Source: Herbinix sp. (lineage in GTDB: Bacteria; Bacillota; Clostridia; Lachnospirales; Lachnospiraceae). Taken from it: a stretch of DNA of 64,000 bases. Location of the stretch: NCBI GenBank assembly GCA_029256105.1, contig JAQSYO010000002.1, forward strand, positions 310,001-374,000, read 5' to 3'. Under the pieces are notes generated by a model. That model made no database searches. It saw nothing but the letters and a program-made list of their open reading frames with translations, and was not told the origin of the DNA. The translations under genes and the position numbers were made by a program. Below, piece after piece: positions 7,176 through 62,263 of this stretch (positions within the stretch are counted from its first letter, which is position 1; each line of letters starts with the position of its first letter).

Positions 7176-8567
7176 TTGAAACATAGCTTAAAAGCAAAAT
7201 TATCAGCAACGATTCTGGTTATTGTTCTTCTTACGATAGCAATAATCAGCTTTCTGGCCAACTTTTTTATTAATCGGCAATTCACTGACTATATTACCAA
7301 GCAACAGGAATTAAAAGCACAGATTATAACCTCGAGCATTAGCCAACAATATACCAAGTTTACGAATCAATGGAATTTAGATTATGTTCATGCCATCGGA
7401 ATGTTCTCCCTCTATGAAGGTTATATAGTAAAAGTTTATGATAAAGATAATGTGATTTTATGGGACGCGCAATCGCATGATATGAAATTGTGTAATCAGA
7501 TCATGGAGGATATTTCAAATCGCATGCGAATTGAGTATCCACAGATAGAGGGGGAATTTACCTCTACCGATTATTCACTTGAACAGAACGGAACGACAGT
7601 TGGTAAGATCAGCATCAGCTATTTCGGACCATTTTTCTTGAATGAAAATGAGTTTAAGTTTCTTCATTCACTGAATACAATTTTATTTAGTATTGGTTTT
7701 ATCTCCTTAGCAGTATCAGTAATAGTCGGGCATATTCTTGCGAAGCGAATTACTCACCCAATTTTAAAGACAGTGGAAGCGACGAAGCAAATCGCGGATG
7801 GAAATTATGAGGTGCGGCTAGTAGAAGAAAGTAACACCATGGAATTAGATATGCTGGTAGGTTCCATTAATCATTTGGCTGTGTCCTTAGAGACCTTGGA
7901 GAAGTTAAGAAAACAATTAACGGAGGATGTGGCTCACGAGCTTCGGACCCCGATTACAATATTACAATCCTATATCGAAGCAATGACCGAAGGAATATGG
8001 GAAGCTTCACCCGAACGACTGCAAAGCTGTTACGAGGAAGTGATTCGTATTGGCAAATTAGTAGGTGATTTAGAAAGCCTTGCAAAGCTAGAAGGTGAGA
8101 ACCTAAAATTGAATAAGACACATATGGATTTGTATCCGGTTGTTGTGAAAACAGTGGACAGTTTTGCAAGTGAGATTGAGAATAAGAAGCTGGAGGTAAC
8201 AATCAAGGGATCACATCTGGAATTAATGGCTGATCAAGATCGTATCAAGCAAGTAGTAGTAAACCTTTTTTCGAATGCGATTAAGTATTCGAAGGATAAC
8301 TGCAAGATATCCTTTGAATTTTTTGAAACCAAAGATTCTACAGGCTTTTTTATTAAGGATAATGGTGTGGGTATTCCAAAAGAGGAACTTCCATATATTT
8401 TTGAACGTTTTTACCGAGCGGATAAATCGCGTAACCGTTTAACTGGAGGTACCGGAATAGGTTTAACCATCGTAAAATCCATAGTGGAGGCGCATGGAGG
8501 CAGAATATCCGTGGAAAGTAATATGAATGAGGGTAGTAAATTTACTGTAACCTTACCGAAAGAATAA
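7176..8567 (+). CDS. Sensor histidine kinase (HAMP-HisKA-HATPase), TTG start
   Basis: DVAHELRTPI, NLFSNAIKYS, DNGVGIPKEELPYIFERFYRADKSR; abuts the RR stop with GGAGGTG at 7164-7170. Confidence 0.92.
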   Translation: MKHSLKAKLSATILVIVLLTIAIISFLANFFINRQFTDYITKQQELKAQIITSSISQQYTKFTNQWNLDYVHAIGMFSLYEGYIVKVYDKDNVILWDAQSHDMKLCNQIMEDISNRMRIEYPQIEGEFTSTDYSLEQNGTTVGKISISYFGPFFLNENEFKFLHSLNTILFSIGFISLAVSVIVGHILAKRITHPILKTVEATKQIADGNYEVRLVEESNTMELDMLVGSINHLAVSLETLEKLRKQLTEDVAHELRTPITILQSYIEAMTEGIWEASPERLQSCYEEVIRIGKLVGDLESLAKLEGENLKLNKTHMDLYPVVVKTVDSFASEIENKKLEVTIKGSHLELMADQDRIKQVVVNLFSNAIKYSKDNCKISFEFFETKDSTGFFIKDNGVGIPKEELPYIFERFYRADKSRNRLTGGTGIGLTIVKSIVEAHGGRISVESNMNEGSKFTVTLPKE

Positions 8568-41174: not shown

Positions 41175-41280
41175 GGAAGATTATTCTTCCAATAATACAG
41201 GGAGGATAATTCATCCTAAACAGGGAGGATAATTCCTCCTAAACAAGGAGGATACTTCCTCCAAAAACAAGGAGGAAGAT
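41175..41280 (+). repeat. Tandem Shine-Dalgarno palindromes, ~23-nt period
   Basis: GGAAGATTATTCTTCC (41175), GGAGGATAATTCATCC (41201), GGAGGATAATTCCTCC (41224), GGAGGATACTTCCTCC (41247), GGAGGAAGAT (41271) then ATG 41282. Confidence 0.95.
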
Positions 41281-41281
41281 A

Positions 41282-41674
41282 ATGGAGAAGTTCAGGATAT
41301 TAGTAAAAGGCGTTGTTCAATATGAGGATAAGTACCTTGTGGTTCACAAATGGTATGATGATCGTGTGTCAGAGCCATATCAATGGGAATTTATAGATGG
41401 TGTGATTGAATTCGGGGAAGGGCCTGACAAAGCCGTGTTAAGAAGCATCTTTGAGCAAACCGGATTATCTGCAACCATTGATCGAATACTCTACACCTGG
41501 TCCTTTATGACAGGTGATGTATTTAACATAGGAATCAGTTACTTATGCAGAGTATCCTTTGATGATGTAATATTGTCCGAGGACTTGGTGGACAGCCGGT
41601 GGATTATGAAATTTGAAATGGAGAATTACGTAAACAGCAAGGTATTGGAAGATGTAGAACAGGCGGAACTGTAA
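41282..41674 (+). CDS. NUDIX hydrolase-like protein
   Basis: FIDGVIEFGEGPDKAVLRSIFEQTGL resembles a degenerate NUDIX box. Confidence 0.7.
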   Translation: MEKFRILVKGVVQYEDKYLVVHKWYDDRVSEPYQWEFIDGVIEFGEGPDKAVLRSIFEQTGLSATIDRILYTWSFMTGDVFNIGISYLCRVSFDDVILSEDLVDSRWIMKFEMENYVNSKVLEDVEQAEL

Positions 41675-43020: not shown

Positions 43021-43098
43021 GAGGGAGATGCCTCATAGAGAAGGAGGCATTTTCTTCAAAAAACAGGAGGCAAAGCCTCCAAAAAAAGGAGGCTTTTT
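43021..43098 (+). repeat. Shine-Dalgarno palindrome array 5' of pyrF
   Basis: GGAGGCATTTTCTTC (43043), GGAGGCAAAGCCTCC (43066), GGAGGCTTTTT (43088); 22-23-nt period. Confidence 0.9.
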
Positions 43099-58522: not shown

Positions 58523-58556
58523 TTCATAATTTGTTGGTTGAGGAATATAGTATACA

Positions 58557-58592
58557 ATAAGGGAATCCGTAAGGGGATTCCTTTATTGTATT
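58557..58592 (+). terminator. Rho-independent terminator of queA
   Basis: AATAAGGGAATCC-GTAAG-GGGATTCCTTTATT. Confidence 0.75.
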
Positions 58593-58699: not shown

Positions 58700-58728
58700 T
58701 TGAAATACAAAAAATTGTGTGCTATACT
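58700..58728 (+). promoter_or_regulatory. Sigma-A promoter of amt leader
   Basis: TTGAAA, 17-nt spacer, TATACT. Confidence 0.65.
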
Positions 58729-58810
58729 CTCGTTAACTTATTAATAAGATTTAAACAAAGAAGTTAATAAAAAGCATATTTTACTCAGAAATTACCATAT
58801 ATAAATAATT

Positions 58811-59212
58811 CCGACAATGATGTCAAAGCTTTTCAAGAGCTTTGGCTTTTTTAAATTTCATAAGGAATACTGACAATGAAGTCAAAACATAGTAATCGTT
58901 TTGACTCTTTTTTATTTCATAAGAAATACCGACAATGAAGTCAAAACATAGCAATCGTTTTGGCTCCTTTTAATTTATTAAGGAATACCGACAATGAAGT
59001 CAAAACATAGCAATCGTTTTGACTCCTTTTAATTTAATAAAAAATACCGACTATGAGATCAAAACATAGCAATCGTTTTTTTCCTTCTAATTTAATAAGA
59101 AATACCGACAAAGAAGTCAAAACAGGGTAGGTGTTTTGACTTCTTTTAATTTAATAATTGATACTGACAATGTAGTCAAAACTTATCATGAGTTTTGACC
59201 TCTTCTTTTTTA
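58811..59212 (+). repeat. 7-copy tandem array of hairpin/terminator-like elements, 59-bp period
   Basis: Copies start CyGACwAwG at 58811, 58870, 58929, 58988, 59047, 59105, 59164; each with GTCAAAAC...GTTTTGAC-type stem followed by a pyrimidine/T-rich tract (copy 5 degenerate). Confidence 0.95.
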
Positions 59213-59374
59213 TTAACAGTAAGAGAATTGTCTTGCCAATGATTAATATTAATCATTCATTTACACCAGAAGACGATGGAGACAGGGTAGTAATACCTTG
59301 GCCCCATGTTTATAAGTTAAAGTGGATATTGATTTTTCTACAACAGGAACACAAAAAGAATAGGAGGTGGCAGT

Positions 59375-59707
59375 ATGAGTAATCAAAACATTGGGAAGGG
59401 GAACAACAGAAAAAAGAAGATCATAGTCTATTTCCTTTATCTGGGCGCATTGAGCATAATATTTTCAGGGATTTTCTTTGGTGCTTATAGTGTAATAAAT
59501 GACATCAGTTTACCGGTTTTTAAAACATCGGTTCCAGGAATTGTATTTGGAATGCTGGTAGCATATATGGGGATTCGGTATTACTTCATGGTTTCGGATT
59601 TTAAAATTGAGTTTCTTAAGAATGATGCAAAATTTTCTTGGAGTAATTTTAAAAAAGAAAAAAAGAAAGTTCGTGTAACAAAAAATAAATTAATAATAGG
59701 GAGGTAA
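59375..59707 (+). CDS. Small 2TM membrane protein upstream of amt
   Basis: ATAGGAGGTGGCAGT-ATG; two TM segments; 5 bp before the amt start. Confidence 0.7.
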   Translation: MSNQNIGKGNNRKKKIIVYFLYLGALSIIFSGIFFGAYSVINDISLPVFKTSVPGIVFGMLVAYMGIRYYFMVSDFKIEFLKNDAKFSWSNFKKEKKKVRVTKNKLIIGR

Positions 59708-59712
59708 TAATT

Positions 59713-61281
59713 ATGAAAAAATCAGGAAAGTTTATTGGGCTACTGGCCTTGGTAGCTGCTTTGGCTATTGGTCTTGCATTAGCGTTTTCACCAGCTGGTA
59801 ATGCTGATCCAACCGGGGCATCGTATGTAGCCACAACAGGTTCTGAAACATTAAACGATGTTGCTACAACAGCAAACAAAGCCTATTATGGCGCAAATTA
59901 CACCTGGATTATGATAACCGGGTTTATGGTATTCTTCTTCCAATGTGGATTTGCTATGGTTGAGACAGGGTTCTGTCGTGGTAAAAATGCCGCTCATACG
60001 ATGACGATGAATTTTATGGTTTTCCTCGTAGGTGCAATCGGATATTTCATTAGCGGCTTCGCTATTCAGTTTGGTGGTTCCGGTGGAGCAGCAGGTCTTG
60101 GTTCCGGAGGTGGTGCACTTGATGCAATGCTTTCCATTCCTGGACTTGGTGGCATCATGGGTTATAAGGGTTTTATGTTATCAGGGGCTGGAATCTATGA
60201 CCCAGGTATTTATGCACTTTTCTTCTTCCAAATGGTATTTATGGATACAACAGTAACGATTCCGACAGGAGCAATGGCGGAACGAGTAAAGTATTCTGCA
60301 TATGTTATTATATCACTTTTCATCTCAATGTTCCTATATCCATTCTTCGGTAACTGGGTATGGGGCGGTGGTTGGCTTGCAACACTTGGAAAGAATTTTG
60401 GTTTAGGTCATGGAGTTGTTGATTTTGCAGGTTCGGCAGTTGTTCACTCAATGGGTGGTATGATGGCGCTATCAGGTGCAATCGTTCTTGGGCCAAGAAT
60501 TGGTAAGTTTAAGAAAGACGGATCTACGAGAGCTTTCCCAGGACACAACATTCCGATGGCAATTGTCGGAACTATCATTTTATTCTTCTGCTGGTTCTCT
60601 TTCAATGCCGGCTCAACATTAAATGCTTCAGATTTCAGACTTTCTGTAGTTGCAACCAATACGATGATAGCCGGTGCGATCGGTGGTTTGGCAGCAATGT
60701 TCTACATGTGGATAAAATATGGCAAACCAGACCCGTCCATGACGGCAAATGGTGCTTTAGCAGGCCTAGTTGCAGTAACTGCACCTTGCGCATTCGTTAA
60801 TGCAGCATCAGCATTTGTAATTGGTTTAGTTGGTGGCTTATTAGTTTGTATAGCAGTTCCGTTTGTTGAGAATAAGTTAAAGCTGGATGATCCGGTAGGT
60901 GCAATTTCCGTACACTGTATCAACGGCTTATGGGGAGTAATTGCATTAGGACTCTTTGCAGATGGTTCTTACGGTGATGGAGTTAACGGTGTTGCAGGCG
61001 GAGTTAAGGGCTTATTCTTTGGAGATGCATCCCAGTTGGTTGCGCAATTAATTGCAGTAGTTGTATTATTTGTATGGGGCTTCGGAGTTTCCTATTTATT
61101 CTTCAAGTTACTTGATAAAGTATGGGGTCTAAGAGTTGCTCCAGAGGTTGAGTTAGATGGACTTGATATTCCAGAAATGGGCGTACTAGCATATCCGGAT
61201 CAGCAATTATTGAAATGCGAATTAGATTTTGACTCAGCAGATAATGCACCAATCAAACAATTAGCAAGATTTAAAAAATAA
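59713..61281 (+). CDS. amt: Ammonium transporter
   Basis: FFQCGFAMVETGFCRGKNAAHTMTMNF, DFAGSAVVHSMGGMMALSGA, WFSFNAGSTL, ISVHCINGLWGVIALGLFADG. Confidence 0.96.
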   Translation: MKKSGKFIGLLALVAALAIGLALAFSPAGNADPTGASYVATTGSETLNDVATTANKAYYGANYTWIMITGFMVFFFQCGFAMVETGFCRGKNAAHTMTMNFMVFLVGAIGYFISGFAIQFGGSGGAAGLGSGGGALDAMLSIPGLGGIMGYKGFMLSGAGIYDPGIYALFFFQMVFMDTTVTIPTGAMAERVKYSAYVIISLFISMFLYPFFGNWVWGGGWLATLGKNFGLGHGVVDFAGSAVVHSMGGMMALSGAIVLGPRIGKFKKDGSTRAFPGHNIPMAIVGTIILFFCWFSFNAGSTLNASDFRLSVVATNTMIAGAIGGLAAMFYMWIKYGKPDPSMTANGALAGLVAVTAPCAFVNAASAFVIGLVGGLLVCIAVPFVENKLKLDDPVGAISVHCINGLWGVIALGLFADGSYGDGVNGVAGGVKGLFFGDASQLVAQLIAVVVLFVWGFGVSYLFFKLLDKVWGLRVAPEVELDGLDIPEMGVLAYPDQQLLKCELDFDSADNAPIKQLARFKK

Positions 61282-61330: not shown

Positions 61331-61669
61331 ATGAAGAAGTTAGAAATTATTATTAAGCCGGAACGTCTGGAGGATTTAAAGAAAATCCTGAATGAATGTC
61401 AAGCAAACGGACTTATGATTACCAATATCATGGGCTATGGTAAACAAAAAGGATATGTTCAGATTTACCGTGGTACAGAAAATCATGTAAATTTATTACC
61501 TAAGGTTAAGGTGGAAACGGTAGTTCTTCCGGAAGTTGCTACCAAAATCGTTGATCGAGTAGTAAAAGAGATTAATACAGGCAATTACGGAGATGGCAAG
61601 ATATTCATTTATGAGGTTGAAGATGTTGTCAGAATTAGAACTGGTGAACGTGGCCACGACGCATTATAA
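61331..61669 (+). CDS. glnK: P-II family nitrogen regulatory protein
   Basis: MKKLEIIIKPERLEDLKKIL; YGKQKGYVQIYRGTENHV; GDGKIFIYEVEDVVRIRTGERG. Confidence 0.94.
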   Translation: MKKLEIIIKPERLEDLKKILNECQANGLMITNIMGYGKQKGYVQIYRGTENHVNLLPKVKVETVVLPEVATKIVDRVVKEINTGNYGDGKIFIYEVEDVVRIRTGERGHDAL

Positions 61670-61707
61670 AAAAAGAAACAGTAACAGTATAAAATATAGG
61701 AGTTGAA

Positions 61708-61768
61708 GATACCCTGTAAATTAGGCACTGCGAGAAGTTGTGGCTACTTTACAGGGTATCTTTACGAT
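61708..61768 (+). terminator. Terminator-like hairpin between the two P-II genes
   Basis: AAGATACCCTGTAAA...TTTACAGGGTATCTTTACG. Confidence 0.75.
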
Positions 61769-61924: not shown

Positions 61925-62263
61925 ATGAAAAAGCTTGAAATTATTATTCGACCAGAGAGGCTAGAGGATTTAAAGCAAATTCTTGAGGAAAGTAAGGCAA
62001 ATGGTCTTATGATCACGAATGTAATGGGGTATGGTAAACAAAAAGGGTATGTAAATATTTATAGAGGCACGGAATGCCATGTAAATCTGTTACCAAAGGT
62101 TAAGGTTGAAACGGTAGTGACGGCTGAGGTTGCAGAAGTTATAATTGAAAAAGTATTAAAAGAGATTAATACAGGAAATTATGGTGATGGTAAGATATTT
62201 ATATACGAGGTAGAGGATGTAGTCAGAATCCGTACGGGTGAACGAGGCCGGGATGCATTATAA
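61925..62263 (+). CDS. Second P-II family nitrogen regulatory protein
   Basis: Highly similar to 61331-61669; C-terminus GDGKIFIYEVEDVVRIRTGERGRDAL. Confidence 0.94.
   Translation: MKKLEIIIRPERLEDLKQILEESKANGLMITNVMGYGKQKGYVNIYRGTECHVNLLPKVKVETVVTAEVAEVIIEKVLKEINTGNYGDGKIFIYEVEDVVRIRTGERGRDAL

What the first reader, a model, noticed from the sequence alone, without database searches (positions are those of the whole stretch)
58700..59375. Seven-copy tandem array of covarying terminator-like hairpins in the leader of the amt-glnK operon
A sigma-A-like promoter (TTGAAA-17-TATACT) is followed by seven direct repeats at a 59-bp period (58811, 58870, 58929, 58988, 59047, 59105, 59164). Nearly every copy carries a stem-loop plus T-rich tract. 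Stems keep pairing while sequence changes: copy 1 GTCAAAGCT/AGCTTTGGC, copies 2-4 GTCAAAAC/GTTTTGAC (copy 3 ends GGC), copy 6 GAAGTCAAAACA/TGTTTTGACTTC, copy 7 GTCAAAACT/AGTTTTGAC. Covariation suggests selection on RNA structure. The array lies between the promoter and a nitrogen-scavenging operon. It could be a serial attenuator, a multi-site platform for an RNA-binding antiterminator (ANTAR-type regulators are a known precedent for paired hairpins in Firmicutes nitrogen operons), or a copy-number-tunable rheostat. The loops (7-9 nt) do not uniformly match the ANTAR hexaloop, so a different binder is possible.
Basis: partly seen in the sequence, partly recalled or inferred. Interest (0 to 1): 0.82.

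Follow-up and report, generated by a model that had tools for sequence, protein, structure and literature searches.

The report
Tandem ANTAR antiterminator array before amt
In front of an ammonium-uptake operon of a Clostridia-type bacterium, one RNA on/off switch (a terminator overlapped by a small hairpin of the kind that ANTAR proteins recognise) has been copied seven to eight times in a row, apparently giving a strict gate on a nitrogen-scavenging gene and a natural test of how few hairpins such switches need.

Summary
The array is real: seven 59-nt units (58807-59199) lie between a sigma-A-like promoter and a membrane protein-amt-glnK operon. Six units carry an intrinsic terminator. It is in a second hairpin just upstream, GAC-[AATGAA]-GTC. 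Its 3' arm is the start of the terminator's 5' arm, so the two exclude each other, and the loop has A1 and G4, the ANTAR signature. Copy 5 has lost hexaloop stem and terminator together. An eighth, terminator-less hexaloop ("copy 0") sits exactly one period upstream. The same unit occurs in amt leaders across Clostridia, mostly once or twice (73 in 53 leaders; about 1 in shuffles), and before other nitrogen genes. The genome encodes one ANTAR protein, next to glnA. Best reading: a serial attenuator opened by that protein (NitR type). Two things are unusual: the tandem amplification, and the lack of the P1 recruitment hairpin that known ANTAR antiterminators need. In many leaders the hexaloop starts 6-25 nt after the -10 box, leaving little or no room for P1. 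This is a new variant of a known kind; binding and termination are untested.

The parts
58700..58728 (+). Predicted promoter TTGAAA-17-TATACT with TG element
   Evidence: similar element at similar distance from the first unit in relatives
58754..58765 (+). Copy 0: hexaloop hairpin AAC-[AAAGAA]-GTT without terminator, 25 nt after the -10 and exactly 59 nt before the copy 1 hexaloop
   Evidence: 27 of 59 match the array consensus, shuffled mean 18.8, 1.3% of shuffles as high; no foldable terminator
58813..58846 (+). Copy 1: hexaloop GAC-[AATGAT]-GTC (58813-58824) overlapping terminator 58822-58846
58872..58906 (+). Copy 2: hexaloop GAC-[AATGAA]-GTC (58872-58883) overlapping terminator 58880-58906
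58931..58965 (+). Copy 3: hexaloop GAC-[AATGAA]-GTC (58931-58942) overlapping terminator 58939-58965
58990..59024 (+). Copy 4: hexaloop GAC-[AATGAA]-GTC (58990-59001) overlapping terminator 58998-59024
59049..59084 (+). Copy 5, degenerate: GACTATGAGATC (A1 and the closing C-G pair lost) and no terminator stem
   Evidence: no covariance-model hit
59107..59146 (+). Copy 6: hexaloop GAC-[AAAGAA]-GTC (59107-59118) overlapping the strongest terminator 59110-59146
59166..59199 (+). Copy 7: hexaloop GAC-[AATGTA]-GTC (59166-59177) overlapping terminator 59175-59199
59272..59315 (+). Relic of the distal unit of relatives: GAC-[GATGGA]-GAC, hexaloop stem broken, hairpin kept, U-tract reduced
   Evidence: alignment with the distal units of seven relatives; fold
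59375..59707 (+). 110-aa protein, no family match, first gene of the operon
59713..61281 (+). amt, ammonium transporter
   Evidence: PF00909 and TIGR00836
61331..61669 (+). glnK-type P-II protein
   Evidence: PF00543

Best explanation
The array is a serial ANTAR-controlled attenuator. RNA polymerase starts just after the promoter ending at 58728 and meets six working intrinsic terminators. By default each folds (-8 to -18 kcal/mol, against about -0.7 for the 3-bp hexaloop hairpin), so little transcript reaches amt-glnK. Under nitrogen shortage the ANTAR protein encoded beside glnA (NitR type) binds the hexaloops, pins the GTC arm that each terminator needs, and polymerase reads through. Several gates in series should make leakage multiplicative and the response steep. 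The array arose by tandem amplification of the promoter-proximal unit that relatives carry once; copy 0 kept its hexaloop and lost its terminator, while copy 5 and the distal unit decayed. Shown by sequence: anatomy, mutual exclusivity, conservation in relatives, one ANTAR gene. Inferred: NitR binding, termination, direction of the nitrogen signal, history, and the benefit of many copies.
For: Hexaloop with A1/G4 overlapping the terminator in 6 of 7 copies. 73 such units in 53 amt leaders against 0-3 per shuffled set. Test without loop constraint: hexaloops are the favoured loop length, G4 in 62/70, purine-1 in 65/70; control regions lack this. G-U wobbles 81 against A-C 10 in the terminator stems, so RNA-level selection. 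One ANTAR protein in the genome, directly after glnA. Further units before a family-5 solute-binding protein gene and glnA in the same genome and before asnB, gltB, amt, argD-like and pyrG genes in the family. Model hits in 81/175 genera with ANTAR against 4/25 without, p = 0.004. Loss of hexaloop stem and terminator together in copy 5.
Against: No binding, termination or expression data. No P1 hairpin, which studied ANTAR antiterminators need (PMC8934654). NitR differs from EutV at three of the RNA-contacting positions I could read (Tyr164 to His, Arg142 to Lys, Lys143 to Glu). The metagenome-assembled relative with a five-unit array (G031) has no NitR match, though that genome is only 87% complete. 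Within the array, similarity through recent duplication says little about selection.
Confidence: 0.82

Rival explanations
1. The units are ANTAR attenuators, but the number of copies is not selected: tandem duplication inflated a one- or two-unit leader by slippage or unequal crossing-over, and the extra copies are nearly neutral because one or two gates suffice.
For: Most relatives have one or two units. Copies 2-4 are the most alike (51-56 of 59), as after recent duplication, and copy 5, copy 0's terminator and the distal unit have decayed.
Against: Six copies keep hexaloop arms perfectly and terminators intact while terminator loops diverge. A relative has an independent five-copy expansion of a different 71-72-nt unit.
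Confidence: 0.35
2. The array is a set of DNA operator palindromes (GTCAAAAC-N9-GTTTTGAC) for a DNA-binding nitrogen regulator such as a GlnR-like protein.
For: The stems are palindromic in DNA too.
Against: G-U wobbles outnumber A-C mismatches 81 to 10 on the transcribed strand; T-tracts follow on one side only; the conserved loop rule and mutually exclusive hairpin have no role in DNA; units vary in sequence while pairing is kept.
Confidence: 0.03
3. Each copy is a ribosome-sensing attenuator: the ATG in AATGAA opens a 12-codon reading frame ending at the U-tract.
For: Copies 2-4 read ATG AAG TCA AAA CAT AGC AAT CGT TTT GAC ... TAA, with AAGGA about 9 nt upstream in copies 2 and 4.
Against: Loop position 3 is T, and thus ATG possible, in only 26 of 70 units of relatives; copy 6, the strongest terminator, has AAAGAA and no ATG.
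Confidence: 0.03
4. The hairpins are read by something other than an ANTAR protein, such as a metabolite or another RNA-binding antiterminator.
For: No Rfam family matches, and the classical dual-hairpin form is absent.
Against: A1/G4 hexaloop, overlap with the terminator, nitrogen genes and a glnA-linked ANTAR gene all point to ANTAR. The unit is too small for a known aptamer (general knowledge).
Confidence: 0.08

Closest known systems
ANTAR dual-hexaloop antiterminators (EutV/eut, NasR/nasF, AmiR/amiE; PMC3369931, PMC8934654)
   Same: Hexaloop with A1 and G4 on a short stem whose 3' arm overlaps the 5' arm of an intrinsic terminator; ANTAR protein; nitrogen-related genes.
   Different: One hexaloop per terminator and no P1 at a short linker; seven to eight units in tandem at 59 nt; hexaloop close to the predicted transcription start.
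Predicted ANTAR regulons for ammonium transporters, P-II, glutamine and glutamate synthesis, including Desulfotomaculum acetoxidans with at least 13 elements in six transcription units (PMC3369931)
   Same: Same gene functions, and more than one ANTAR attenuator per transcription unit.
   Different: Those elements were found as dual hairpins; head-to-tail amplification in one leader is not mentioned in the text that I read.
NitR antiterminator of Clostridium acetobutylicum and the ANTAR response regulator Clo1313_2030 of C. thermocellum (as cited in PMC4676874)
   Same: ANTAR-type regulator tied to ammonia assimilation in Clostridia.
   Different: The present protein was identified only by position beside glnA and by its domain; the RNA target of NitR is not described in the text held.
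Single-hexaloop ANTAR sites suggested in PMC8934654
   Same: One G4 hexaloop as minimal binding site.
   Different: Proposed there for sites without the time limit of transcription; here a single hexaloop overlaps a terminator, where P1 was thought necessary.

Membership tests
ANTAR-target antiterminator RNA | Hairpin of at least 3 bp with a 6-nt loop, A at 1 and G at 4 | tested here: met
   6 of 7 copies and copy 0; relatives G4 62/70, purine-1 65/70 without constraint on the loop
ANTAR-target antiterminator RNA | Hexaloop hairpin overlaps and excludes an intrinsic terminator | tested here: met
   GTC shared by both structures; folds, anatomy
ANTAR-target antiterminator RNA | Two hexaloop hairpins (P1, P2) with a linker of about 2-25 nt (PMC8164766) | tested here: not met
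   P1-like hairpins not above chance (linker-restricted 10/68 against 5.7); neighbouring hexaloops in the array are 59 nt apart; a eutA leader in the same family does show two
ANTAR-target antiterminator RNA | Genome encodes an ANTAR protein | tested here: met
   One, beside glnA
ANTAR-target antiterminator RNA | Upstream of nitrogen-metabolism genes | tested here: met
   amt-glnK here; asnB, gltB, amt, argD-like, pyrG in the family
ANTAR-target antiterminator RNA | Protein binds the hexaloop through G4 and relieves termination | not testable with these tools
   Needs binding and transcription assays
Known riboswitch or RNA family (Rfam 15) | Covariance-model match at gathering score | tested here: not met
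   No match in the window
Ribosome-mediated attenuator (leader peptide) | Conserved short reading frame overlapping the terminator | tested here: not met
   ATG not conserved among units

The most novel reading that the evidence does not exclude
Clostridial NitR-type leaders are a distinct, P1-less class of ANTAR antiterminator in which one hexaloop at the very 5' end of the transcript suffices. In this array the protein is recruited at the terminator-less copy 0 and handed from hexaloop to hexaloop as polymerase advances, so that each unit is the recruitment hairpin of the next: a processive relay through six terminators.
Probability: 0.2. Interest if true: 0.82.

Novelty: new variant of a known kind. 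Interest (0 to 1): 0.62.

Why it matters
The current EutV model says that both hexaloops are needed and that a 20-nt longer linker abolishes antitermination (PMC8934654), and published searches require two hairpins (PMC3369931, PMC8164766). Leaders with one hexaloop, often starting 6-16 nt after the -10 box, would show that P1 is dispensable in a widespread nitrogen regulon, and would explain why such targets were overlooked. The seven-copy array and relatives with one to five units are a natural copy-number series for asking what serial attenuators buy: lower leak, a sharper response, or a relay.

Tried and rejected
Rfam scan: no family. A P1 hairpin next to each unit: not above chance. Leader peptide: ATG not conserved. 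DNA operator: the G-U/A-C asymmetry and one-sided T-tracts argue against. Terminator of the upstream queA gene: queA has its own terminator at 58552-58591 and a promoter follows. The R1 model as a regulon finder: it also finds ordinary terminators (C38, C83, C84 hits have no proper hexaloop unit), so its hits were inspected one by one, and its counts per genome are not counts of ANTAR elements. A DNA search with the whole leader in 34 genomes of the genus found no second copy of this array (one 27-nt match in G007 was not pursued). Literature searches found no report of tandem or single-hexaloop ANTAR leaders; subscription papers on NitR are not in the library.

Full report
CHECK. The window holds a 59-nt tandem array at 58807-59199 (spacings 59,59,59,59,58,59 in the register). 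A promoter TTGAAA-17-TATACT lies at 58700-58728. Downstream are a 110-aa protein without family match, amt and glnK. Six of seven copies form terminators of -8.4 to -17.7 kcal/mol; copy 5 does not (-1.7). The leader folds better than all 100 shuffles (z -4.06). The upstream gene queA has its own terminator at 58552-58591, so the array is not its end.

THE MISSED FEATURE. Every working copy has a small hairpin GAC-[hexaloop]-GTC running into the terminator, with loops AATGAT, AATGAA, AATGAA, AATGAA, AAAGAA and AATGTA. A hexaloop with A1 and G4 on a stem of at least 3 bp is the recognition signature of ANTAR proteins (PMC3369931, PMC8934654). Its 3' arm GTC is part of the terminator's 5' arm, so the two structures exclude each other. 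The hexaloop hairpin is weak (-0.7 kcal/mol) against the terminator, so without a protein the default is termination. In copy 5 the hexaloop stem, A1 and the terminator are all lost, as expected if the antiterminator is only needed where there is a terminator.

RELATIVES. Seventy-eight loci encoding Amt relatives were fetched, and the leaders of 52 of them plus the window were scanned. 73 hexaloop-terminator units were found, against 0-3 in each of 20 dinucleotide-shuffled sets (five of the 73 were then set aside by eye as spurious). Because that scan demands the motif, I repeated it with terminator criteria alone. Of 104 leader terminators, 70 have an overlapping hairpin with a 6-nt loop, against 16-41 for loops of 4, 5, 7, 8 or 9 nt. 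Position 4 is G in 62/70, position 1 a purine in 65/70 and position 2 A in 63/70, while positions 3 and 6 vary. Control regions lack this pattern (for example G4 in 4/33 downstream of amt). The terminator pairs covary (the set was chosen for terminators, so pairing as such is partly built in). G-U wobbles outnumber A-C mismatches 81 to 10, so selection acts on RNA of the transcribed strand (the scan also favoured G-U over A-C, which inflates this).

COPY NUMBER AND HISTORY. By the scanner, 25 leaders have one unit, 14 two, and one each four, five and six (the last is the window, seven with degenerate copy 5); by eye some leaders have one more than the scanner counts. L035, a metagenome-assembled relative with an 85% identical Amt, has five copies of a different 71-72-nt unit, so tandem expansion at amt probably occurred at least twice. 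Several relatives share a two-unit plan: a proximal unit 23-28 nt after the -10 and a distal unit near the gene. In the window the distal unit survives as a relic. A hexaloop without terminator, AAC-AAAGAA-GTT at 58754-58765, stands 25 nt after the -10, like the first unit of relatives, and exactly 59 nt before the copy 1 hexaloop. Its 59 nt match the array consensus at 27 positions (shuffled mean 18.8; 1.3% of shuffles as high). I read it as the first member of the array, its terminator lost; the similarity is modest, so this is likely rather than shown.

THE PROTEIN. The genome encodes a single ANTAR protein, 182-184 aa, directly after glnA, matching Pfam only in its ANTAR domain. It aligns to EutV, Rv1626, NasR and AmiR. 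By my reading of that alignment with the residue numbers of PMC8934654, the EutV Met172 and Lys147 positions are conserved, His replaces Tyr164 as in AmiR, Arg142 is Lys and Lys143 is Glu. The N-terminal half has no Pfam hit and no obvious phosphoacceptor aspartate (inference), so the signal may not be phosphorylation. A close relative (G004) has an 86% identical protein.

THE REGULON. In the same genome a unit GAC-AATGTG-GTC precedes a family-5 solute-binding protein gene, and a weaker one, GGC-GAAGGA-GTT, precedes glnA itself. In other genera of the family the best model hits precede asnB, the glutamate synthase large subunit, amt, argD-like aminotransferases, pyrG and some other genes, largely a nitrogen-assimilation set. 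ANTAR genes occur in 175 of 200 sampled genera; model hits occur in 81 of those 175 and in 4 of the 25 without (p = 0.004; the division of unlisted genomes was made by elimination).

NO P1. Known ANTAR antiterminators have two hexaloops; both are needed, and a 20-nt longer linker abolishes activity (PMC8934654). Published searches require dual hairpins, with linker 2-25 nt in PMC8164766. Here a P1-like hairpin is not significantly more frequent than chance in amt leaders (7/42 first units against 4.4; linker-restricted 10/68 against 5.7, at most 13 in shuffles) or in 26 further leaders (1 against 2.7). Of the 22 among those 26 with a good promoter match, the hexaloop arm begins 6-27 nt after the -10 in 20, most often 11-14. 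Transcription should start about 7 nt after the -10 (general knowledge), so in most there is no room for a P1. As a positive control, a eutA leader of a genome in the same family shows two hexaloops 15 nt or less apart (TCC-GATGCA-GGG and AGC-GGTGAA-GCT), though my automatic terminator rule missed its terminator. Start sites are predicted, not mapped.

MECHANISM. The best-supported account is default serial termination, relieved when NitR binds the single hexaloop of each unit. Six gates in series should multiply: if each let 10-20% through, the leak would fall by several orders of magnitude (illustration, not data). Whether NitR must be captured afresh at every unit or is passed along the array from copy 0 is open; the second idea would adapt the EutV hand-over model but must bridge 59 nt. 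That copy number is merely drift is a serious rival.

NOVELTY. The kind (ANTAR attenuator before nitrogen genes, including ammonium transporters) is known. New here, as far as the held literature shows, are the tandem amplification and the single-hexaloop architecture near the transcription start across a clostridial nitrogen regulon.

Noticed in passing
G000:C31:280705-280759 (L124) and L034:8415-8465, outside the window: Single hexaloop-terminator units in the leaders of a family-5 solute-binding protein gene and of glnA-nitR in the same genome, suggesting a small regulon and autoregulation of the ANTAR gene.
   Followed up: partly
L035:2097-2432: Independent tandem array of five hexaloop-terminator units (period 71-72) in the amt leader of a metagenome-assembled relative; that genome shows no NitR match but is only 87% complete.
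   Followed up: partly
window 61331-61669 and 61925-62263: Two similar glnK-type genes in a row, separated by a terminator-like hairpin (about 61707-61764), so the second is probably transcribed on its own; no hexaloop unit there.
   Followed up: partly
window 41197-41290; similar at 43041-43098: Three tandem 23-nt repeats GGAGGATAATTCCTCC, each a Shine-Dalgarno-like sequence paired with its complement, directly before a real AAGGAGG and start codon: a row of possible ribosome-binding decoy hairpins.
   Followed up: no
window 59375-59707: 110-aa protein between leader and amt without Pfam or NCBIfam match; most relatives seem to have an open frame of similar kind in the same place.
   Followed up: no
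L174 (G236:C22), minus strand about 8290-8440: eutA leader with two G1/G4 hexaloops, so ANTAR hexaloops in this family can start with G rather than A.
   Followed up: partly
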